A DNA stretch of 64,000 nt. It comes from Candidatus Jettenia caeni. GTDB lineage: Bacteria > Planctomycetota > Brocadiia > Brocadiales > Brocadiaceae. Made by a program: the position numbers and the translations under genes. Position 1 is the stretch's first letter. Every line of letters starts with the position of its first letter. Below are positions 51,629 to 63,788 of the stretch, piece after piece. Below the pieces are notes generated by a model that had not been told where the DNA came from, made no database searches, and saw only the letters and a list, made by a program, of their open reading frames with translations. The DNA lies in contig BAFH01000003.1 in assembly GCA_000296795.1 (NCBI GenBank), forward strand, positions 186,401 to 250,400, given 5' to 3'.

Positions 51629-51705
<77 letters not shown>

Positions 51706-51711
51706 GTAAAA

Positions 51712-52791
51712 TCAAGGGATTACGGCTATCGCCGTAATCCCTTTTTTATGAGATTGTGCTAAATTTGTGCTAAAATTATTCTGCACCTTATCTAATATCT
51801 CAACTCCACTTCTTAAACTCTCAGCATAATGATGCGCATATCGCATAACCATTGATATAGACTTCCATCTGCCAAGTCTCTGAACAGCGTAAACATCGAC
51901 TCCATTCTGAATGAGCCTTGTTGCAAAGGTGTGCCGTAAATCGTGAAATCTGAATTTCTCAATACCTGCTTTTTTTACTGCTAGCCTGAAAGATCTATCT
52001 AAGTTATCAGGACCGATCTTATTGCCATTGTTGTTATAAAAGACAAAATCATTCTTGATCGATCTTATTTTATTCCTTGCCATGAGAATTTCTATGGCCT
52101 TTTCATTGAGGGGCAGGGTATCCTTGCATTTGTTTTTTTGTTCGAGGATAGTAAAGGTCTTTCTCTCTAAATCCACTCTATCCCACACCAGATCTATGAG
52201 CTCACCCCGTCTTAATCCTGTATTCAGGCAAAAAAGTATTATCTCTTGTAACCAATAGGGAGATGTTTCTAGTAATCTTTTTTCTTCTTCAAAGGTAAGC
52301 CATCTCTCAATTTGATTGCTTACCTTTTCCTTGGATACCTTACTTACGGGATTATCATTAACCCATTCCCACTCTTTTATTGCGAGATTAAAAGCATGTC
52401 CCATGAGAATTAACTCATTGTTGACCGTTTTTGGTGCGGCACATTCTTTTATTCGCTCAATCTTATAAGCATATATATCCTTTGGAGCAATCTTATTAAG
52501 CTTATAATGTCCAAAGTATCTGTTTAAATGGGCTACCAAACTTTTATCCCGCATATAAGTCTTAGGAGCCTTTTTAGGAGAGTATTCTAAAAGATATTTG
52601 TCCATCATCTCCTCAAAGGTATTATCTTCATGTTGATTGACCTCAAACCATTTACCCTCTGCTATTTTGGTCATAACCTTGCAATAGATCTTTTCAGCTA
52701 ACTTTTTTTCCGTTACTGTAGGCCTTCTTATTTGTTTACCATTATAGCTAAACCTCATCCACCAGATATTGCCACGTCTATAAAGTCCCAT
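51712..52791 (-). CDS. int: Tyrosine recombinase / phage-type integrase
   Basis: This site-specific recombinase of about 359 residues integrates and excises the element at the initiator tRNA. An N-terminal AP2-like DNA-binding region (MGLYRRGNIWWMRFSYNGKQIRR) and a SAM-like core-binding domain (residues about 55-145) precede the catalytic domain. The latter has Arg in NTGLRRGELIDLVW (about 190), His and Arg in FHDLRHTFATRL (about 279-290), and the nucleophile Tyr in MRYAHH (about 315). I start at the ATG at 52791, preceded by GGAAAGGAGAG; longer frames run into the upstream gene. The gene points at the tRNA and ends 6 bp from it. Confidence 0.93.
   Translation of the reverse strand: MGLYRRGNIWWMRFSYNGKQIRRPTVTEKKLAEKIYCKVMTKIAEGKWFEVNQHEDNTFEEMMDKYLLEYSPKKAPKTYMRDKSLVAHLNRYFGHYKLNKIAPKDIYAYKIERIKECAAPKTVNNELILMGHAFNLAIKEWEWVNDNPVSKVSKEKVSNQIERWLTFEEEKRLLETSPYWLQEIILFCLNTGLRRGELIDLVWDRVDLERKTFTILEQKNKCKDTLPLNEKAIEILMARNKIRSIKNDFVFYNNNGNKIGPDNLDRSFRLAVKKAGIEKFRFHDLRHTFATRLIQNGVDVYAVQRLGRWKSISMVMRYAHHYAESLRSGVEILDKVQNNFSTNLAQSHKKGITAIAVIP
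51716..51747 (+). terminator. tRNA terminator overlapping the integrase C-terminus
   Basis: An 11-bp perfect stem (GGGATTACGGC at 51716-51726, GCCGTAATCCC at 51731-51741) with a 4-nt loop is followed by six T on the plus strand. The same bases encode the last residues of the integrase on the other strand. Confidence 0.85.
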
Positions 52792-53158
52792 TTTCTTTTC
52801 TCTCCTTTCCGAGACCTTGACTTTGGCCTGGTTTCCCGTTGGCTGAATTATAACCCTTGCCTGTAGCATCATCAATAGCGTTTTTAACGATTCTATCTAT
52901 GTCATTACTATGTGCCTTTGTTGCCTTTTTTAAGGTCTTACGTGAAGTATCTGGTAAAGCTTTTGATTGTATTATCCATTTTTCAATTTCTTCTATATCA
53001 AATCGCCAAAGACCATTAAGTTTGTAAGACGGTAGTAAGCCATTCTTTGCCCAGGAATAGAGAGTTGATTCTTTTACATTTAGAAATTCAGCTATTTCTT
53101 GTATTTTTAAAAGCCTCATCGTGTTTAACCCTGCACTTTTATGTGAAGATTCTGACAT
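52778..53158 (-). CDS. xis: Excisionase-like helix-turn-helix protein
   Basis: This 126-residue protein (or 113 from the ATG at 53119, which has a better ribosome site) contains a MerR/excisionase-type winged HTH: MRLLKIQEIAEFLNVKESTLYSWAKNGLLPSYKLNGLWRFDIEEIEKWI. A basic, flexible C-terminal tail follows. It overlaps the integrase start by 14 bp, so the two are co-translated. Its position beside the integrase suggests it directs excision and possibly represses or activates the element; AlpA-type regulators of satellites have the same fold. Confidence 0.82.
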   Translation of the reverse strand: MSESSHKSAGLNTMRLLKIQEIAEFLNVKESTLYSWAKNGLLPSYKLNGLWRFDIEEIEKWIIQSKALPDTSRKTLKKATKAHSNDIDRIVKNAIDDATGKGYNSANGKPGQSQGLGKERKENGTL

Positions 53159-53265: not shown

Positions 53266-53613
53266 CTAATTAGGTATGAATTTTAAGATAAGATTTGTCG
53301 AAGCCTCCTCTGCTTGTTTCTTCGGCAATCCACCATCAAATTCCATTATTCCTGCTCGTTCCTCAAATAATTCTTTTAGGTGTCCATTAAAACCAGTAAC
53401 CCTTCCATCGAACATTTCCAAAACCTTCTCAACTATGCTTTTTGTATTTTGAGCGTATTCCTGATTTTTACATTTTACCTCTTTAATTTTGTATTCAGTT
53501 AAAAACCGGCTAGCTTTTTCTTCAGCAAGCTCAATTATTTGTCCCTGATGAAGGTTTATGATACCAACTTCTTTTGTTTTGATGGAAAATGGTATCATCA
53601 CTCTGTATTTCAT
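53266..53613 (-). CDS. Small hypothetical protein of the replication cluster
   Basis: This 115-residue protein is not recognised. It begins MKYRVMIPFSIKTKEVGIINLHQGQIIELAEEKASRFL, a beta-strand-rich segment like those in small phage proteins. A helical stretch then follows (EYAQNTKSIVEKVLEMFDGRVTGFNGHLKELFEERAGIMEFDGGLPKKQAEE). Its start overlaps the stop of the primase-helicase gene by 4 bp (ATGA), so it belongs to the same transcript and is probably a real gene. Confidence 0.7.
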   Translation of the reverse strand: MKYRVMIPFSIKTKEVGIINLHQGQIIELAEEKASRFLTEYKIKEVKCKNQEYAQNTKSIVEKVLEMFDGRVTGFNGHLKELFEERAGIMEFDGGLPKKQAEEASTNLILKFIPN

Positions 53614-55388
53614 ACTTCTATTCCTAGCTCATCCAAATTCACAAAATTTGCTGTTTCCCATGAATACTTTTTATTTCTTGTTTCTGACTCATCTGGCTGA
53701 TAAAATCGCTTAGAATCAAAATCGTACTTTAGACCGAACTCAACATCTTGTTTCCCTCTAAATCTGTTCTTGAAAACTTGTACTAATGTATCGAAACCAG
53801 CATATTTCTCTAAATATCCATCAGTATTTTTTTCTTCCATATTGAAACGATGTATGCCTATAACGTTATCAGCTCGATCTGTTATATTTCCTGAACCAGC
53901 AATATCCATTTTGTTGAGCATGCCAACTGTCTTCCTTGGATGTGCTACCAGATGAACATGCACATTGTATCGTTTTGTAAATTCAACCAATTTCCCAACA
54001 AAGATACTTTGCGATTGGTAATAATTATCACTCTTAATTCCATCACAACCAGTAGTCATAAGATTATCAATTAAGAATACCTTACAATCGTAGCGCCTGG
54101 CTGCAATCTCGCATAAATCCAATATCTTCATTGGCTCATTTGTTGTATAACTATCATAAACATAAAACATATCCTTGTACCAATTCTCCAATTTTGATAT
54201 TACTTCAGCTTTAACTTTTGCGATGTCGTGATTCTCTACATAATCATAAAAGAAATCGAGGTTTTCGGGTCCTACCATCTGTAAGTGGATCCATTCCTTG
54301 AATAAATGCAAGGTTAGTTCACCGCTGTATGCAAAAACTGGAAAGTCCTGATCTATTGACTCTACTAACATCTGACCTAAGAGCGTCGATTTTCCGCTTG
54401 AATTAAAACCAGTCCACACCGTTAACTCACCCATCCTGAAACCACCCAAAATCATATCAAGCTTCTTAATGTTAGACTGAACCCTTTCAATTTGGCTGTA
54501 ATCAAGCTTAGTAACATCGGCCAATCTTTTTATGCCTGCAACGGGAACCTCTCTTGCTGTTTCGACGGCTTTTCGAACACTTTCTGTACCTTCTTTCATG
54601 AGATGTTCATTGGCATCTTTGTATGGGCTATTGACAATAAAGCATCGAAATTGGCCTAGTCGAAGGATAAGTTTATCTACCATTTTCTTTCCTGCTTCAT
54701 CATTATCACCCCAGATTTTTATTTTCTTAAATTGGTTAAGCCACTCCCAACAATTCTCTATACAAGAGAGATCCTCTGCACCACTTGGTACACTGATAGC
54801 ATTTTTTATGTTACATTCATCAAGTGCAAGTGCATCAGGCTCTCCTTCGACAATGACTAATGGATATTGTGGATCGCACAAGTCCATCCCCCAGAATACA
54901 GGCTTACCTCCTTCTTCTCGCCAATGTTTCGGTTCCTTTTGTGGTGTTCTATACTTTACTAAGACCAATTTCCCCTCTTCGCGATATAAGAATGCAATGG
55001 CACCGTTACACTCTGATACTTCTCTTCTCTCTAAAGTTTGCTGTGATATCCCACGTTTCTTAAAGTATTCCCCTATTGTTTGTCCAAATGGTGTTAATGC
55101 TGTTTTGGGCATTATATACGCTTTGGGTTTTTTATAATTTCTTTGAGAATTAACCTCATTTCTGTCTGCTTCTTCTCCAAATTTCTCGCATAATTGACGG
55201 AAAGTCCCTTTTTTGTCGCAATTGTTTAACCGTTTACAATTGAAAGTCCTTTTTGTTACGTTAAGAGCGAATTTATATTTTTCGTTTTTTGGTCCACCTT
55301 TGCAAAATGGGCAGTACTCCGGTATGATCTCATCGCCATGAGTTTTATAGGGTTGTAGGTATTTATTAGCAAATTCTTCAATGTTCAT
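53610..55388 (-). CDS. Primase-helicase (toprim plus DnaB-like)
   Basis: This 592-residue fusion resembles T7 gp4/Twinkle-type primase-helicases. An N-terminal zinc-ribbon-like region (YCPFCKGGPKNEKYKF...CKRLNNCDKKG, residues about 21-62) precedes a toprim domain (LVIVEGEPDALALDE near 178-192, then IWGDNDEAGKKMVDKL near 222-237). A RecA-fold helicase follows, with Walker A GFNSSGKSTLLGQML near 327-341 and Walker B KVFLIDNLMTTG. GKQDVEFGLKYDFDSKRFY resembles the DnaB-family C-terminus. The protein should unwind and prime the element's own DNA. It lies in the minus-strand block between the replication-O-like gene and the small hypothetical gene. Confidence 0.9.
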   Translation of the reverse strand: MNIEEFANKYLQPYKTHGDEIIPEYCPFCKGGPKNEKYKFALNVTKRTFNCKRLNNCDKKGTFRQLCEKFGEEADRNEVNSQRNYKKPKAYIMPKTALTPFGQTIGEYFKKRGISQQTLERREVSECNGAIAFLYREEGKLVLVKYRTPQKEPKHWREEGGKPVFWGMDLCDPQYPLVIVEGEPDALALDECNIKNAISVPSGAEDLSCIENCWEWLNQFKKIKIWGDNDEAGKKMVDKLILRLGQFRCFIVNSPYKDANEHLMKEGTESVRKAVETAREVPVAGIKRLADVTKLDYSQIERVQSNIKKLDMILGGFRMGELTVWTGFNSSGKSTLLGQMLVESIDQDFPVFAYSGELTLHLFKEWIHLQMVGPENLDFFYDYVENHDIAKVKAEVISKLENWYKDMFYVYDSYTTNEPMKILDLCEIAARRYDCKVFLIDNLMTTGCDGIKSDNYYQSQSIFVGKLVEFTKRYNVHVHLVAHPRKTVGMLNKMDIAGSGNITDRADNVIGIHRFNMEEKNTDGYLEKYAGFDTLVQVFKNRFRGKQDVEFGLKYDFDSKRFYQPDESETRNKKYSWETANFVNLDELGIEV

Positions 55389-55410: not shown

Positions 55411-56157
55411 TTAAATTAACTCCATTCCCGTTGAGCTTAGCTCACAATTTCGACCCACCGGTGGACTGCTATGCATTTTCGAAGCCAGCGTATCGTAATG
55501 CTTTTGAAGGCTCCCTGTAGACAGTATGTTATGGCACCAGAAATGATCTTGCTGGCACCATTCAATTACCTTCTCAATTTCTTCACTTGTTCTATTATCC
55601 CTTCTAATCATCAAGGCTATGTCTTTTGCCCATTCTTGTATGTCCGGTTTCTTGAAGTTAGGTAAGCGGTTTAGGATATGCTTTAATAAAAGATTCACTA
55701 GTCGGATTTCATTAGAATCCAACGGAAAGGTTTCTTTTGTAATAGTTTCTTTTGTATTATTTCTATTGTAGGTTACATTTTCGCTAACGTTTGATTTACA
55801 TTTTTGTAAATGATTGTTTGCTTTTTTGTTAATCGTTAGCTTTTTTGTTAATGGCTTCCAGGAACTGTAATCCTTATTAATTCGGTAACTATTGATAGGT
55901 GGAATAGCTTTTTTGTAAATAATCCTCATAGATTCAAGTAGTCTTATTGCTCTCACCACAGATGGTTTTAGAAGCCCTGTTGCTAGATGAAACTGTGATA
56001 GGGCAATTTTATCTTCTTCTTTCCCGAAACCCCATGTTTTCCTGATAATAACATCCAGCACTTGTCTTGCTTCTCCAGGTATTCTTATTCTTGCCAATGC
56101 CTCCAAAATATCATTTTCCAGGCGGGTGAAACCTTTTACGCATTTAGCTCTAGACAT
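55411..56157 (-). CDS. Phage replication protein O-like
   Basis: This 248-residue protein has an N-terminal winged-helix of the phage replication O type: KCVKGFTRLENDILEALARIRIPGEARQVLDVIIRKTWGFGKEEDKIALSQFHLATGL (residues about 6-63). That pattern of a replicase-loading protein that recognises the origin and recruits helicase is well known in phages. The basic linker (KKLTINKKANNHLQKCKS) and a C-terminal helical region follow. It is immediately upstream of the primase-helicase gene, as in many phage and satellite replication modules. The origin, if in the gene as in lambda, is not evident. Confidence 0.85.
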   Translation of the reverse strand: MSRAKCVKGFTRLENDILEALARIRIPGEARQVLDVIIRKTWGFGKEEDKIALSQFHLATGLLKPSVVRAIRLLESMRIIYKKAIPPINSYRINKDYSSWKPLTKKLTINKKANNHLQKCKSNVSENVTYNRNNTKETITKETFPLDSNEIRLVNLLLKHILNRLPNFKKPDIQEWAKDIALMIRRDNRTSEEIEKVIEWCQQDHFWCHNILSTGSLQKHYDTLASKMHSSPPVGRNCELSSTGMELI

Positions 56158-56639: not shown

Positions 56640-57503
56640 CTACCACTTTATTTCCACGGTTAGACAGTAAACTCCTTTCCCATTGCTTGCAATTATTACA
56701 TTATCTTGTTTCATTCCAAAATTATTACGCCATTTTGTATTAAATTTACATACAAACGTATCAAAATCACCTCTTTCAGCATCACGGATTTTTTTATACC
56801 CCTCACAATCCACATCGTAAAATTTTTTAAGTAGCCATGCAATAGGCCTTTGTTCTTTATTTAATGCTTTTAAAATACTGATCGTTTTTTTTCCTTTTAA
56901 TGACATCTTTTTACCGTTAAAAACTAAACAGTTCTTTGATTTATCATAAGCAAAAATAGGTTTGCTCTGTACTTTTTTTAACTCCTCAGCATATCCTAAC
57001 ACCTCTTCAGCAATAACTAGATCGGCTTCTAATGAACTACGATTAGCATCCATACCAAGTCCGTTCGATTCGATATTTTGATAGTCTCTCAACACCTTAT
57101 GGGCCCAGCTGATTGCATACAGTGTCACAATTCCGTAGTCAGTAATCTGCACGACTTCTGAAACAGACTGTTTATTCTTTTTTACTAAGAATATTACTTC
57201 TCTACATTTGTCGGGAATTGTAATCTCTATGTTTGATATAAAAAGGTTATTCATAGACCCAAAAGAAAGAATTTCATATTTCAAGTTATACATAATAATA
57301 TCTTTCCATATTTTTTGGATTAATTCTGCTTTATGGGATTGGTCTCCTTTGATCGAATGCTCCAAAATTTTTCGTGAATCTTCAATTATCTGAATTGCTC
57401 TTTTTGTTAAATTGGAACGCTTAAAGCGGCAAGGTATTTCACCGGATAGTGGCAACCATGAAGAGCCCAAATATTCGGCTAGGTTGCACGAAAGGCGTGT
57501 CAT
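56640..57503 (-). CDS. Unknown protein with OmpR-like winged-helix C-terminus
   Basis: This 287-residue protein is not recognised as a whole. The N-terminal 180 residues are mostly helical, with RAIQIIEDSRKILEHSIKGDQSHKAELIQKIWKDIIMYNLKYE and YGIVTLYAISWAHKVLRDYQ. The last 90 residues (KNCLVFNGKKMSLKGKKTISILKAL ... DTFVCKFNTKWRNNFGM ... ASNGKGVYCLTVEI) have the layout of an OmpR-type winged helix: an N-terminal strand pair, three helices and the closing hairpin with GKGVYCL. It may be a transcription or replication regulator of the element. It stands alone with its own terminator. Confidence 0.6.
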   Translation of the reverse strand: MTRLSCNLAEYLGSSWLPLSGEIPCRFKRSNLTKRAIQIIEDSRKILEHSIKGDQSHKAELIQKIWKDIIMYNLKYEILSFGSMNNLFISNIEITIPDKCREVIFLVKKNKQSVSEVVQITDYGIVTLYAISWAHKVLRDYQNIESNGLGMDANRSSLEADLVIAEEVLGYAEELKKVQSKPIFAYDKSKNCLVFNGKKMSLKGKKTISILKALNKEQRPIAWLLKKFYDVDCEGYKKIRDAERGDFDTFVCKFNTKWRNNFGMKQDNVIIASNGKGVYCLTVEIKW

Positions 57504-57686
57504 TGATCACCTCACTTTCTTTTCTTGTAATAAAACCATCTCCTCTGTCTATGAGAATTGAAGGGAGAGGTAGTAGAGATTGATTTTTCTAAGTCGATAT
57601 CCTATACCTTAATTGTTACATTCAATAGTCTAACACAAGATTGGATCGAATAAAATACGGATTAATCACAGTTATATAGTTTAGGT

Positions 57687-57727
57687 TCTTTTCACAGTTA
57701 GTTGTAAAAAGCAAAGGACTTTTAATG
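57687..57727. repeat. 41-bp direct repeat, left copy
   Basis: TCTTTTCACAGTTAGTTG and then AAAAAGCAAAGGACTTTTAA; the right copy (63747-63788) differs at four positions plus one indel. The left copy abuts the decayed IS5-type fragment. Confidence 0.8.
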
Positions 57728-58489: not shown

Positions 58490-58620
58490 TTTCAGGGATA
58501 TGCGGGAACTGTTGGATTTGAGGATTGAAAATATATTCACCGCCGGTGGGAGCGACAACAAGTTCTTCCAAATTTCTGTCCAGCTTGAGCGAGAGTTTAG
58601 GCTGAACTCCGGAAATGGAA
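58490..58620 (-). pseudogene. HipA-like toxin kinase fragment
   Basis: About 43 residues, ISGVQPKLSLKLDRNLEE, then VVAPTGGEYIFNPQIQQFPHIPE, match the N-terminal part of HipA serine/threonine kinases, where SGVQPKLSL and the GGEYILKPQ-type strand are conserved. The similarity ends at 58490 and begins exactly where the helicase reading frame starts on the opposite strand. The kinase core and the hipB antitoxin are absent. This is a remnant of a toxin-antitoxin locus, cut by the arrival of the helicase gene. Confidence 0.65.
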
Positions 58621-58629
58621 AAATTGTTT

Positions 58630-61600
58630 ATGCCTATAAATAAAATCACTAAGAATGGAAATAAAAAGAAACAAGAAGAGCTAATAGGACTCATCAATTC
58701 TCGCATAGAGAAGCTTCGCCCAAAATTACTGGACCTGAGTCGCCGAAATCCGCTTCTATCAACTCGATTCTCTGACAAATCCAATTCTCATATTAGAGTT
58801 GTAGACGAATTGCCTAATGTCTTGTTTCAAGAAATTGGCGAAAGGACGATGCAATTTTTACCTTTGCCGCCATTAGATGGTGATCCCAAGGATGAAACCA
58901 CGCGACAATTTAAGGATTCATTGGCTGATGCCTGTATAACAGATGACATTTATAAAAAGAATTTGGAATCAATTGATCCAGATGACTCAAATGCTCCTGA
59001 TAAATTGGCTCAAGCTGAACGGGAATTAAAAGATCGCGTTCGGGTTAAACTAGGAATGGCTCCACGGCAAACAATGAAAAATCTATCACTTGTTCAGCAC
59101 GCCAGAAACAACAACATTTCTCCAAGCTATGATTTGCCCTTGCCTAACGAAGCACATAAGGATGGACGGCACAAAGACAATAAAGTTCAAACACTACTAT
59201 TGCCCGATTTATTAGAACGGAGATTAAATGCGATTTTGTCGAAATGCACAACATGGATTCAAGAAACGGGCATTGACGTGCTTCGCGTTGCATTTGGCTT
59301 CTTAGAATGGAACGATACAAATGACTCTCGTCCGGCATTAGCCCCCTTGATGTTGGTTTCGGTTCAAATTGAAAAACATAAGACACAAAAAGGATTTCAG
59401 TTCACGATTACAAGCCTGGGTGATACTCCAGAATTCAATACGATTCTAGCGGAAAAGCTCAAAATCGATTTTGGTCTAGAATTACCAAAATTTAAAGAAA
59501 ATATAACTCCGGAAGATTACTTTCTTGAGGTTTCAAAATTATCGCCAAGAGGCCTGCAATGGCGGGTTAGAAGACAAGTAGCTATTGGAGTTTTTCCGTC
59601 TGCCAGAATGGCTATGTATCATGATCTGGATACTTCATCATGGGATTTTGGAAACCAACCCGTGATAAATAATTTATTTGGTGATGCGAGTTTGGCACAA
59701 GGAACTTCGCTTTTCGGTGATGAGTATGACATTGATGATCCCTCAATTGAGATTAAAGTTCCTCTCACCGTAATGGATTCTGACTCTTCACAATTTAGCG
59801 TAATGGTTGATGTCGCAGATGGGAAAAACATTGCAGTTGAAGGTCCTCCCGGAACTGGCAAATCACAAACAATCGTTAATACGATTGCATCAGCATTAGC
59901 GCAAGGCAAAAAAATTTTATTCGTGGCAGAGAAGATGGCCGCTTTAGAGGTTGTCAGATCACGTCTCGAAGCTTGTAAGTTGGGGCCATTTTTACTTACT
60001 TTGCAAGCAGTCAGGTCTGCTAAAGAACAAGTCGTAGACTCAATTCGAGATAGAATTTCTTTAGGGAATGAGATTAATCCAAGGAATTATGAGGAAACAC
60101 TAGAAGAATTTAAGAATACACGTACTAAATTGCAGAATTATATTCAAGTCATTTCGTCTGTATATGGCGAAACTGACATGACTGTTTATGAAATAATTGG
60201 GCACAGCATTTCAACACGCAAGCTTTTTAATGAGTTGCCGGAAGAAGTGCGATCCGCCCCTATCCCCAAACCGGGACAAATTAATAAACAAACCTTAAAG
60301 AATATTTCTTCCCTATGTGACTGTCTGGAAGAATCTTGGGATGAATCTAATTCACATAAAAAGTATTGGCGAGAAATTGGCGTGGCAAATGTGGATCTCT
60401 TTAGCGCTGACGAAATATTAAATTCTGCAGCCAAGGTTGCTAGGGAATTTAAACAGTCCGCGAATAAGCGGGGCCATCTATTAGAGATAGGTCTTAGCGA
60501 AGAGATGGAATGCTCTAAACTCAAAAAGATCTGGGAAGCATTGAATAAATTGCCAGCCAATCGAACAGAGATAAACATTCAATTAATAAAGCGGTTGTCG
60601 TCTAGTAGTGCTATTGATCAGACAAGAGGTTTTTTTTCAAAAATTGATAAATTCAAAAAAAGCAAAAATCTTATAAGTGCGATTTTGATCGATCCTTTGG
60701 AGCATAGTACAGCAAGCAATTTGTTAAGAATGAGCCAGTTGGCTAAAGAATTAAGTTTGTCTGAATTATCAGAGGAAGAAGCTAATAAAAAGCTTGCGAA
60801 AATGCGAGAGGATGAAAAGAAAATAAAAGCAGCGCTGGGCATTTATGATGAGCTGCGCAGGCAAGTAAAAGATATCGATTGTATTTCAATAAAATTCTTA
60901 ATCGCTCTATGTGAAGTAGCTCAAGACACAGAAAGAAAAATTCTTATATTAAGAGCTGCGCGATTTGAAAAGCCTGAGGTTAAAGATTTTCTCTTAAAAT
61001 ATAAAGCTGAAGCGAAATCTTTACAGGAAAGATATAAGGAATTATCAAAAATATTTAATTTATCCACATCGCCTTATGTGGATGATTTAGTGCGCCATTG
61101 CGAAGTCCTTTCGAAGGCTGGTTTCTTTTCTGTTCTATCGCCTAAATATCATGCTGCAAAAAGATTTTATAAATCAATCGCACAAACTGGGAAATGGGAT
61201 GGAGCCAAATCGGTTATTTTATTGAAACAATTAGTTTTATGGATTAGAGGAGAGAAATCGTTTGCTTGTGATGAGCAAATAAAAGAATTATTAAAATCCC
61301 ACTTTAACGGAATGAATACTAATTTTGAAATCTTTGAAAAATTATTGGACTTTTATGAGCTGGCAGAAAACAAGCTTAGAGGTCTTGGTAATAAGAATCT
61401 TCGAGGGTTTTTATTTTCCGCCCCTCTTGACTCAGTTATGTCGCTTCCAAAGTTGGATGCCGACAATCCTCTCTATCAGTTTCCAGACGAAACAATCGAC
61501 AGCCTTTTGTATAATGCTAGACAGATGAGAGAAGAAATAAACTTATACGAAAAATCACTGAGCGAGTTTATTGATTTATCAAGATTGTTTTGCTATCCAA

Positions 61601-63768
61601 AGGATGTTCATGTATCTGAATTAATTAAAATAGCCTGCCAGGTTGAGCAGCTTTATACGTTATGTCTCGAAATATCAAATGATCAGAATATGAAAAATCT
61701 CTTGGCCGAATATCATTCAGGAGTTGAAACAAATGCTGTTCTTGTTGAGCCATCGTTAAAAGTGGCAGAGATCGCAGTGGATTTAGGCGATAATTTTGGA
61801 AAAATTTATTTGAATTCCATAGAAAATGATTCGATTCAGAAGCATTGCGATGTTATAGAACAAATCCTAAAAGCTGATTCAGATGCAGAAGCGGAGTTGA
61901 AAAATTTGACATCACTAATAGAGTCTGATCCTCAATGCCTTCGCAAAGATATGAGCCGAATTGCCTTTTCAGAGTTTATGGCTGAGGCTTCATTGGATAA
62001 AGAAGGACTTATTGCTCATTCTGTGGTGGCTCAGAATATTAAAGATGCAGCCAATGAAGGATATGAAGCTGTCATAAAAGCTTTTTCGAAAACAAAAAAT
62101 TATTATCAGGACTTATCTAAAAATATTGTTGCATTGATAGCTCAGGCAATGGCTAGAGAAGTTTATAAAAGTCACGGCAAGGTTTTGTCCAGTTTTAATG
62201 GGATTAAATTAGATAAACTTCGTAAAGAAGTTGCAGCCCTTGATAAATCTATTCTCGAACTCTCCCGTAAACGCCTTCGGGTAAAATTGATAAAAGAAGC
62301 AAATCCGCCCGAAGGTAGTAGATCAGGAAAACGAAGCGAATGGACGGATATGAACCTCATCCAACATGAAGTATCAAAGAAAACCAGATTTGTTCCTGTC
62401 CGAGATCTAACGAGCAGGGCTGGCAGAGCACTTTTAGAGATCAAACCTTGCTGGATGGTTTCTCCTTTGGCGGTAGCACAATACATTCCTAAAGGCATAA
62501 TCGACTTTGATTTAGTTATCATTGACGAAGCTTCACAAATGACGCCTCAAGATTCTGTAGGTGCTTTAGTTAGAGCAAAACAAGCAATGATAGTAGGTGA
62601 TACCAATCAGTTGCCTCCGACAAGTTTCTTTCAAAAATTCATCGATGACGATGAGGAAGACGAAAACGAAGAAGTAATTACAGAAGAGTCTATTCTTGAA
62701 ATGGCAAATGCGGTTTTCCGCCCAGCAAGAAGGCTTAAATGGCATTACCGTTCAAGACATTCAGGCCTAATTGCTTTTTCAAACAAGTACGTATACGACA
62801 ACGATTTGGTAGTTTTCCCTTCCCCAGTCGAAAACCATCCACATATGGGAGTGTCCTATCGAAAAATCAATGGGCTTTATTCCAAAGGAACAAATCCAGT
62901 AGAAGCCAAAGTTATGGTCGATGCAGTCATTAATTTCATGCATCAGAATAAAGAGAAATCTCTTGGCGTAGTTGTTCTGAATCAGAAGCAAAAGGATTTA
63001 ATTATGCAAGAAATGGATCACGCCTTAGTTAATGATTCGATCGCACAAAAATATGTTGAGCATTGGGAGAAAAATCGGGATGGACTGGAGTCGTTTTTTG
63101 TAAAAAACCTTGAGAATGTCCAAGGCGATGAAAGAGATGTAATATTCATAGGAACGGTATACGGTCCAGAAAAAGAAAATGCTCCTGTGATGCAGCGGTT
63201 TGGCCCTATTAATGGTATCACTGGGAAAAGAAGATTGAATGTTCTCTTTACCCGTGCCAAACAGCAAATCGTTACTTTTTCATCAATGACTTCAAATGAT
63301 GTCCGTGCAGATAACAGAGTTAATGAAGGTGTATTAATGCTTAAGAAGTGGTTGGAATACGGTGCTACTGGACATCTCTTAGTAGATGAATTAAATATTT
63401 CTCGAGAACCGGACTCGATGTTTGAACAATATGTAATTGATCAATTAAAAGCCATGGGTTGTGAATTGATGTCCCAAGTAGGTGTTGCAGGATATTTTAT
63501 AGATATAGGTGTTAAACATTCTAATTGGTCGCACGGGTTCATAATGGGCGTTGAATGTGACGGCGCATCTTATCATTCCTCAAAGTCGGCTCGGGATAGA
63601 GATCGCTTACGCCAAGAAGTGTTGGTGGGGCTAGGTTGGCATTTACATCGTATTTGGTCTACAGATTGGTTTGATGATCCCATTCGACAAAGCGAACGCT
63701 TACGTGAAGCTGTTCAAAAAAGGCTTGAAGAATTAAAAAAAAGGGGTCTTTTCCCAATTAGTTGCTAA
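58630..63768 (+). CDS. DUF4011/SF1 helicase with C-terminal Vsr-like nuclease, candidate defence protein
   Basis: This protein of about 1,712 residues starts with a DUF4011 region (KLRPKLLDLSRRNPLLSTRFSDKSNSHIRVVDELPNVLF; residues about 20-60 onward, including QHARNNNISPSYDLPLP). A split superfamily I helicase follows: Walker A VEGPPGTGKSQTIVNTIA near 402-419, then about 850 residues of helical insert, then Walker B DLVIIDEASQMTPQDS near 1294-1309, GDTNQLPPTSFF, and motif VI RRLNVLFTRAKQQ near 1535. The last 110 residues (MFEQYVIDQLKAMGC ... IMGVECDGASYHSSKSARDRDRLRQEVLVGLGWHLHRIWSTDWF) are a Vsr/DUF559-like nuclease. Single-gene helicase-Vsr proteins such as Hhe are known anti-phage systems; this gene fits that class but function is unproven. 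Start: ATG at 58630, with 58615 as an alternative. Confidence 0.85.
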   Translation: MPINKITKNGNKKKQEELIGLINSRIEKLRPKLLDLSRRNPLLSTRFSDKSNSHIRVVDELPNVLFQEIGERTMQFLPLPPLDGDPKDETTRQFKDSLADACITDDIYKKNLESIDPDDSNAPDKLAQAERELKDRVRVKLGMAPRQTMKNLSLVQHARNNNISPSYDLPLPNEAHKDGRHKDNKVQTLLLPDLLERRLNAILSKCTTWIQETGIDVLRVAFGFLEWNDTNDSRPALAPLMLVSVQIEKHKTQKGFQFTITSLGDTPEFNTILAEKLKIDFGLELPKFKENITPEDYFLEVSKLSPRGLQWRVRRQVAIGVFPSARMAMYHDLDTSSWDFGNQPVINNLFGDASLAQGTSLFGDEYDIDDPSIEIKVPLTVMDSDSSQFSVMVDVADGKNIAVEGPPGTGKSQTIVNTIASALAQGKKILFVAEKMAALEVVRSRLEACKLGPFLLTLQAVRSAKEQVVDSIRDRISLGNEINPRNYEETLEEFKNTRTKLQNYIQVISSVYGETDMTVYEIIGHSISTRKLFNELPEEVRSAPIPKPGQINKQTLKNISSLCDCLEESWDESNSHKKYWREIGVANVDLFSADEILNSAAKVAREFKQSANKRGHLLEIGLSEEMECSKLKKIWEALNKLPANRTEINIQLIKRLSSSSAIDQTRGFFSKIDKFKKSKNLISAILIDPLEHSTASNLLRMSQLAKELSLSELSEEEANKKLAKMREDEKKIKAALGIYDELRRQVKDIDCISIKFLIALCEVAQDTERKILILRAARFEKPEVKDFLLKYKAEAKSLQERYKELSKIFNLSTSPYVDDLVRHCEVLSKAGFFSVLSPKYHAAKRFYKSIAQTGKWDGAKSVILLKQLVLWIRGEKSFACDEQIKELLKSHFNGMNTNFEIFEKLLDFYELAENKLRGLGNKNLRGFLFSAPLDSVMSLPKLDADNPLYQFPDETIDSLLYNARQMREEINLYEKSLSEFIDLSRLFCYPKDVHVSELIKIACQVEQLYTLCLEISNDQNMKNLLAEYHSGVETNAVLVEPSLKVAEIAVDLGDNFGKIYLNSIENDSIQKHCDVIEQILKADSDAEAELKNLTSLIESDPQCLRKDMSRIAFSEFMAEASLDKEGLIAHSVVAQNIKDAANEGYEAVIKAFSKTKNYYQDLSKNIVALIAQAMAREVYKSHGKVLSSFNGIKLDKLRKEVAALDKSILELSRKRLRVKLIKEANPPEGSRSGKRSEWTDMNLIQHEVSKKTRFVPVRDLTSRAGRALLEIKPCWMVSPLAVAQYIPKGIIDFDLVIIDEASQMTPQDSVGALVRAKQAMIVGDTNQLPPTSFFQKFIDDDEEDENEEVITEESILEMANAVFRPARRLKWHYRSRHSGLIAFSNKYVYDNDLVVFPSPVENHPHMGVSYRKINGLYSKGTNPVEAKVMVDAVINFMHQNKEKSLGVVVLNQKQKDLIMQEMDHALVNDSIAQKYVEHWEKNRDGLESFFVKNLENVQGDERDVIFIGTVYGPEKENAPVMQRFGPINGITGKRRLNVLFTRAKQQIVTFSSMTSNDVRADNRVNEGVLMLKKWLEYGATGHLLVDELNISREPDSMFEQYVIDQLKAMGCELMSQVGVAGYFIDIGVKHSNWSHGFIMGVECDGASYHSSKSARDRDRLRQEVLVGLGWHLHRIWSTDWFDDPIRQSERLREAVQKRLEELKKRGLFPISC

Positions 63769-63788
63769 AAGCAAAGGCACTTTTAATG
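63747..63788. repeat. 41-bp direct repeat, right copy
   Basis: TCTTTTCCCAATTAGTTGCT and then AAAAGCAAAGGCACTTTTAA. It includes the helicase stop codon, so the last five codons of the gene lie in the repeat. Confidence 0.8.

What the first reader, a model, noticed from the sequence alone, without database searches (positions are those of the whole stretch)
58630..63768. DUF4011-SF1 helicase-Vsr nuclease as defence cargo of an integrated element
One very large gene combines a DUF4011 N-terminus, a split SF1 helicase core with intact Walker A and B motifs, and a Vsr-like nuclease with Cys/His-containing GVECDGASYHSSKSARDRDRLRQ. That architecture is known from single-gene anti-phage systems (Hhe class) and from other helicase-nuclease islands. 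Its location at the end of a tRNA-integrated element, beside a dead toxin gene and a transposase scar, is typical of defence cargo. Seen: domains and position. Known: helicase-Vsr proteins can protect against phage. Inferred: this one does.
Basis: partly seen in the sequence, partly recalled or inferred. Interest (0 to 1): 0.75.

Follow-up and report, generated by a model that had tools for sequence, protein, structure and literature searches.

The report
Helicase-nuclease defence gene in anammox island
A very large single-gene molecular motor fused to a DNA-cutting domain, probably an anti-virus weapon, sits inside a 37 kb mobile island packed with other bacterial defence systems; the kind of gene is already known, but this branch of the family and its presence in anammox bacteria add new members and a few testable clues.

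Summary
An intact 1,717-codon ORF (58615-63768, +) carries DUF4011, a split Upf1/DNA2-like SF1 helicase with intact motifs, and a C-terminal Vsr/MTES_1575 nuclease whose putative catalytic residues are nearly all invariant in relatives. It lies in a tRNA-Met-integrated element, but in the middle, not at the end: the tRNA 3'-end repeat recurs 36.7 kb downstream, beyond the window. A same-genus genome carries the tRNA joined directly to the right flank (empty site). The element also encodes an Olokun pair (OloA/OloB) and a BREX/Hma-like cluster. Another same-genus genome has a different element at the same tRNA, with complete type II CBASS. Defence cargo is therefore well supported; anti-phage activity was not tested. 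It is not a formal Hhe: it scores 1,208 bits against a cut-off of 2,000 (a Klebsiella Hhe scores 2,744), its best PADLOC model is the candidate PDC-S37, and it groups apart from Hhe in the tree. Relatives in Proteobacteria and Binatota end in a GreA/GreB-C-like domain that the planctomycete members lack. The ~650-residue helical insert evolves faster than the motor, as a sensing module might. New member of a known kind.

The parts
58615..63768 (+). helicase-nuclease gene, 1717 aa (alternative start 58630)
58723..59460 (+). DUF4011 domain (res 37-282)
   Evidence: Pfam 105.5 bits; AlphaFold pLDDT about 70-90 over most of it, no solved fold matched
59839..59865 (+). Walker A EGPPGTGKS (res 409-417)
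   Evidence: invariant G410 P411 P412 G413 G415 K416 S417
60175..62154 (+). about 650-residue mostly helical insertion inside the SF1 core (res 521-1180), fastest-changing part
62512..62538 (+). Walker B / motif II LVIIDEASQ (res 1300-1308)
62719..63279 (+). second RecA-like domain (AAA_12, res 1369-1555)
63421..63711 (+). Vsr/MTES_1575 PD-(D/E)XK-type nuclease domain (res 1603-1699)
   Evidence: Pfam 113 bits; invariant E1604 D1630 E1647 C1648 D1649 H1654 in 14 proteins
51629..51705 (+). tRNA-Met used as integration site; attL = its 3' end (about 51658-51705)
   Evidence: attR at C3:274782-274897
51712..52875 (-). tyrosine integrase of the element
   Evidence: Pfam Phage_integrase 135 bits
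52778..53158 (-). excisionase-like helix-turn-helix protein
   Evidence: TIGR01764 39.1 bits (cut-off 28.8)
53610..55388 (-). Toprim / DnaB-like primase-helicase of the element
55411..56157 (-). phage replication protein O-like initiator
   Evidence: PF04492 63.5 bits
57730..58041 (+). remnant of an insertion sequence
   Evidence: 73% to 18 other copies in the genome
58491..58634 (-). probable HipA fragment, antisense, overlapping the helicase start
   Evidence: phmmer to HipA_C proteins E 0.02, (weak)
57684..57727 (+). copy 1 of a 45-bp imperfect direct repeat (87%) flanking scar + gene
63744..63788 (+). copy 2 of that repeat; contains the stop codon; from 63747 part of an 89-bp intergenic repeat also at C4:448437-448525 (92%)

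Best explanation
A single-protein anti-phage (or anti-foreign-DNA) nuclease-helicase, carried as cargo of a 37 kb tRNA-Met-integrated defence island in an anammox planctomycete (family inferred). Most likely working: the SF1 motor, of the Upf1/DNA2 type, loads on single-stranded or end-containing DNA typical of replicating or recombining phage; the fast-changing helical insert and DUF4011 decide what is bound; ATP-driven movement releases or positions the C-terminal Vsr-like nuclease, which cuts the DNA. Shown here: architecture, intact motifs, purifying selection in relatives, island context, patchy distribution. Inferred: 5'-3' polarity, DNA as substrate, the sensing step, and protection itself.
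For: Domains; best defence-model matches PDC-S37 1071.8 and Hhe 773 bits, NCBIfam Hhe 1208 and ProA 973; closest solved helicases SEN1, SMUBP-2, DNA2, UPF1; invariant catalytic residues; alpha-beta-beta-beta-alpha-beta order in the nuclease model, low confidence; same element holds OloA 237 + OloB 547 bits and a SNF2 helicase / DUF1156 methylase / PglZ-like / DUF499 ATPase cluster; the same tRNA in a same-genus genome holds a different element with cyclase 544, E1-E2 644, JAB 196 and SAVED-nuclease 559 bits; empty site in G002; 4 of 33 family genomes have a relative at E 1e-50; the Loosdrechtia relative sits beside an AAA ATPase and a PD-Lambda-5_B-type methylase (373.6 bits); Hhe relatives on Klebsiella and Vibrio plasmids, one beside Qat. 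Control stretch of 31 window proteins: 3 PADLOC families matched, best only mad3 at 1e-27.
Against: No phenotype data. The PDC-S37 model is a candidate, with no paper found. A DUF4011 gene is a core gene present in every P. aeruginosa isolate (PMC10250203), so DUF4011 alone does not prove defence; the wider superfamily is common in Planctomycetota (101 of 392 genomes). Neighbours of several proteobacterial relatives gave no PADLOC match. The C-terminal domain of the proteobacterial relatives is missing here.
Confidence: 0.72

Rival explanations
1. A DNA-repair or recombination helicase-nuclease serving the host or the element's own replication, as DNA2 does, rather than a defence protein.
For: Closest solved relatives are cellular DNA/RNA helicases including DNA2; the element has its own replication genes (primase-helicase, replication protein O, a sliding-clamp-like protein, an AAA_24 ATPase); a DUF4011 gene is core in P. 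aeruginosa (PMC10250203).
Against: Absent from most relatives and not at a conserved locus; lies between the replication genes and a block of defence genes; best profile matches are defence models.
Confidence: 0.12
2. A weapon in competition between mobile elements: it mainly limits plasmids or rival integrating elements, not phage.
For: Carried by a mobile element at a tRNA where a same-genus genome holds another element; relatives are common on plasmids (414 records) and nearly absent from phages (1 record).
Against: No direct evidence of plasmid targeting; the neighbouring systems (Olokun here, CBASS in the sister genome) are known for phage defence.
Confidence: 0.1
3. Decaying cargo: the gene is no longer functional, having lost its C-terminal domain and its upstream region to transposon and repeat activity.
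For: IS remnant and HipA fragment upstream, repeat at the 3' end, IS about 68 bp downstream; GreA-like tail missing.
Against: 1717 codons open; all motifs intact; two other planctomycete relatives (L025, L077) also lack the tail and end at nearly the same residue, so the short form is probably natural.
Confidence: 0.06

Closest known systems
PADLOC candidate PDC-S37
   Same: Best defence model (1071.8 bits; three stretches, the best being residues 1010-1708 to profile 651-1346 of 1550)
   Different: A candidate family with no paper found in the library; function untested as far as could be found
Hhe (NCBIfam NF042953, single-gene DUF4011-helicase-Vsr anti-phage protein)
   Same: Same order of domains; 45-46% identity over motifs II-VI plus nuclease
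   Different: 1208 bits against a cut-off of 2000, while Klebsiella Hhe scores 2744; separate branch in the tree; insert only about 11-22% identical per block
ProA (NCBIfam NF058533, anti-phage protein)
   Same: Match over residues 21-1709, 973 bits
   Different: Below cut-off 1500; profile longer (1903)
More distant DUF4011 helicases of Planctomycetota (such as G010, G025)
   Same: Same core, about 39-42% over the C-terminal third
   Different: Extra C-terminal region, DUF3320-like by eye, not tested by profile; separate, strongly supported branch
Hachiman HamAB, Gabija
   Same: Helicase coupled to nuclease; in Hachiman the helicase senses damaged DNA and frees the nuclease (PMC12278908); functional analogy only
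   Different: Two proteins instead of one; no DUF4011 or Vsr architecture (own knowledge)
UPF1 / SEN1 / SMUBP-2 / DNA2 helicases
   Same: Same SF1 core
   Different: No DUF4011, no Vsr domain, no 650-residue helical insert at this place

Membership tests
Hhe (NF042953) | DUF4011 + SF1 helicase + Vsr/MTES_1575 nuclease in one protein | tested here: met
Hhe (NF042953) | score at or above the curated equivalog cut-off (2000 bits) | tested here: not met
   1208.5 bits; positive control Klebsiella Hhe 2743.8
Hhe (NF042953) | groups with known Hhe proteins in a tree | tested here: not met
   Query is in a 12-row clade (100/99) apart from the Hhe rows
Hhe (NF042953) | protects against phage | not testable with these tools
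   needs a plaque assay
PDC-S37 (PADLOC) | strong match to the model | tested here: met
   1071.8 bits, E 0, ahead of Hhe 773
PDC-S37 (PADLOC) | found in defence islands | tested here: met
   own element and Loosdrechtia locus; weaker for several proteobacterial relatives
ProA (NF058533) | score at or above the cut-off (1500 bits) | tested here: not met
   973.1 bits
SF1 Upf1-like helicase | Walker A, motif II DEAS, motif III GD.xQL and motif VI intact | tested here: met
PD-(D/E)XK / Vsr-like nuclease | domain match and conserved acidic residues | tested here: met
   PF18741 113 bits; E1604, D1630, E1647 invariant
tRNA-integrated mobile element | integrase next to a tRNA, repeat of the tRNA 3' end at the other boundary, empty site in a relative | tested here: met

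The most novel reading that the evidence does not exclude
The GreA/GreB-C-like domain at the end of the proteobacterial and Binatota members docks on RNA polymerase, so that this branch of helicase-nucleases attacks foreign DNA while it is being transcribed (transcription-coupled restriction). The planctomycete members, without the tail, would be an untethered version that allows a direct comparison.
Probability: 0.1. Interest if true: 0.7.

Novelty: new member of a known kind. Interest (0 to 1): 0.38.

Why it matters
It brings a single-gene DUF4011 helicase-nuclease to anammox bacteria, for which the searched library holds almost no anti-phage work (one paper, off topic), and shows a tRNA-Met site at which same-genus genomes differ: one with Olokun + BREX/Hma-like + helicase-nuclease, one with CBASS, one empty. 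If the tail idea held, it would tie a nuclease defence to transcription. The contrast between a conserved motor and nuclease and a fast-changing helical insert makes the specificity module easy to test by comparing or swapping inserts between relatives.

Tried and rejected
Truncation of the gene by the downstream IS: rejected, since IS homology starts at window 63836, about 68 bp after the stop, and two relatives end at nearly the same place. The C-terminal GreA-like domain surviving out of frame downstream: tblastn of relatives' tails found nothing beyond the gene. Fold of DUF4011: no solved structure below E 0.1; model only partly confident (mean pLDDT 68.9). Model of residues 520-1717: pTM 0.33, helical part confident, motor and nuclease poor; SMC-type hits are coiled-coil matches and were ignored. 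Close relatives on viral contigs: none. Near-identical DNA on plasmids: none. Literature for PDC-S37: none; for ProA: nothing relevant. dN/dS between the query and Loosdrechtia: synonymous sites saturated. The first tree suggested nesting inside Proteobacteria; with one more planctomycete added the branching order within the clade is unresolved, so no donor is claimed.

Full report
What is there. The window is G000:C3:186401-250400 of a 4.09 Mb genome. The family is inferred to be Candidatus Brocadiaceae (anammox planctomycetes), because the same-family genome G005 carries the gene also found in Candidatus Loosdrechtia aerotolerans (identical hit lengths and scores; lineage shown). The ORF at 58615-63768 (+) is open over 1717 codons. 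Pfam places DUF4011 at 37-282, SF1 helicase domains around 393-452 and 1297-1555, and an MTES_1575 (Vsr-like) nuclease at 1603-1699. The motifs are intact, and in 14 aligned proteins the key helicase and nuclease residues are invariant; one more distant relative, L077, departs at C1648 and H1654, so these two are not universal. Closest solved helicases by sequence are SEN1, SMUBP-2, DNA2 and UPF1.

Anatomy. Between Walker A (409-417) and Walker B (1300-1305) lie about 880 residues. AlphaFold models residues 520-1180 as a mostly helical insertion with pLDDT mostly 75-89, while the motor and nuclease parts of that model are poor. This insert is the least conserved part: identity per 60-residue block is 20-58% to Loosdrechtia and 13-30% to the other clade members, whereas motor and nuclease blocks reach about 59-92% and 44-83%. 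In two close pairs of relatives dN/dS is 0.12-0.17 in the insert and 0.03-0.065 in motor and nuclease: all parts are under purifying selection, the insert least. A role in specificity is an inference from this pattern.

The element. tRNA-Met (51629-51705) is followed by an integrase (51712-52875), an excisionase-like protein, a primase-helicase and a replication protein O-like gene. A copy of the tRNA 3' end plus following sequence (116 bp, 89.7%) lies at C3:274782-274897, about 36.7 kb away. In same-genus genome G002 the left flank and tRNA (95.7% over 2.75 kb) run straight into the sequence that in G000 follows the second repeat (87.7% over 820 bp), the expected empty site. In same-genus G001 (97% at the neighbouring purD) the tRNA carries another element of about 19 kb bounded by a perfect 47-bp repeat.

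Defence context. On the same element, PADLOC profiles match OloA (237 bits) and OloB (547), hence an Olokun pair, and a cluster of SNF2 helicase (HmaA 355, BrxHI 341), DUF1156 methylase (HmaB 144), PglZ-like (26) and DUF499/HmaC-like ATPase (47/38), best called BREX/Hma-like. The G001 element has a complete type II CBASS set and a type III methylase. As a control, 31 proteins from the housekeeping part of the window gave three PADLOC family matches, the best to mad3 at 1e-27. So the site is occupied by different defence cargo in related genomes.

Distribution. In 33 family genomes, 4 have a relative at E 1e-50, of which only G005 is close; neither same-genus genome has one. The wider superfamily is common in the phylum (101 of 392 genomes at 1e-100), mostly as more distant proteins. 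Relatives occur in 414 plasmid records, many Klebsiella, and one phage record. Some relatives sit beside what look like integrases or recombinases by sequence (L026, L032, L035, L027, read by eye) or defence genes (L025; Vibrio plasmid Hhe beside Qat), but several proteobacterial neighbourhoods gave no PADLOC match, so the neighbourhood argument is strongest for the anammox loci.

Family. Trees from the C-terminal third put the query with Loosdrechtia (100/100) in a 12-row clade (100/99) with Proteobacteria, Binatota and one further planctomycete; Klebsiella and Vibrio Hhe fall in another supported branch. NCBIfam Hhe gives 1208, 1187, 1158 and 1176 bits for four clade members and 2744 for Klebsiella Hhe, against a cut-off of 2000. 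I therefore do not file it as Hhe; it works like Hhe by architecture and best matches the PADLOC candidate PDC-S37.

The tail. Nine non-planctomycete clade members end in a conserved domain matching GreA_GreB C-term (Bradyrhizobium 33.2 bits, cut-off 26.9; two others 24.8 and 25.6, just below), and a profile of the tails finds solved GreA at E 0.0003 as its best match, among other weak hits. The three planctomycete members lack it. Whether it was gained or lost is unresolved. GreA's C-terminal domain binds RNA polymerase (general knowledge), so a transcription link is a hypothesis only.

Likely working. A motor that moves on nucleic acid coupled to a nuclease is the logic of several defence systems; in Hachiman the helicase senses damaged DNA and frees the nuclease (PMC12278908, which also lists Hhe among defence helicases). 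By analogy the query should detect phage DNA intermediates and cut them. Polarity, substrate and protection are inferred. A caution: a DUF4011 gene is a core gene flanking a defence hotspot in every P. aeruginosa isolate (PMC10250203), so the domain itself is not proof.

Verdict. Real, correctly read in its main points, strengthened by context, and of a known kind. Interest is moderate: a new branch member in an under-studied host, a clear defence hotspot, and a testable tail and insert.

Noticed in passing
G001:C1 about 2817273-2836564 (L061, L067): Same tRNA-Met in a same-genus genome carries another element with complete type II CBASS (cyclase, E1-E2, JAB, SAVED-nuclease), a WYL regulator and a type III methylase: a defence hotspot.
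   Followed up: yes
L003:1584-11386 (C3:251584-261386): BREX/Hma-like cluster: SNF2 helicase, 142-aa unknown protein, DUF1156 methylase, short PglZ-like protein (324 aa), DUF499-like ATPase. The combination fits no single PADLOC system cleanly.
   Followed up: partly
L003:11890-15344: OloA and OloB (Olokun) pair on the element.
   Followed up: partly
L028, L035, L065 and other relatives, C-terminal about 90 residues: GreA/GreB-C-like domain fused to DUF4011 helicase-nucleases in Proteobacteria and Binatota, absent in planctomycete members.
   Followed up: partly
L004:310-1626 (C3:270310-271626): Element-borne DNA polymerase III beta (sliding clamp)-like protein, near an AAA_24 ATPase and a DUF932 protein.
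   Followed up: no
window 57684-57727 and 63744-63788; C4:448437-448525: Imperfect 45-bp direct repeat flanks the IS scar + HipA fragment + helicase gene; the second copy belongs to an 89-bp intergenic repeat found elsewhere in the genome and contains the gene's stop codon.
   Followed up: partly
window 58491-58634, minus strand: HipA-like fragment runs antisense up to the helicase start codon, so the gene's 5' junction lies at a recombination scar; which promoter drives it is unclear.
   Followed up: partly
window 56640-57503, minus strand: 287-aa ORF between the replication block and the helicase with no Pfam or PADLOC match.
   Followed up: no
Planctomycetota: DUF4011-helicase-Vsr relatives are very common in the phylum (101 of 392 genomes), often with open frames near 2000 aa.
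   Followed up: no
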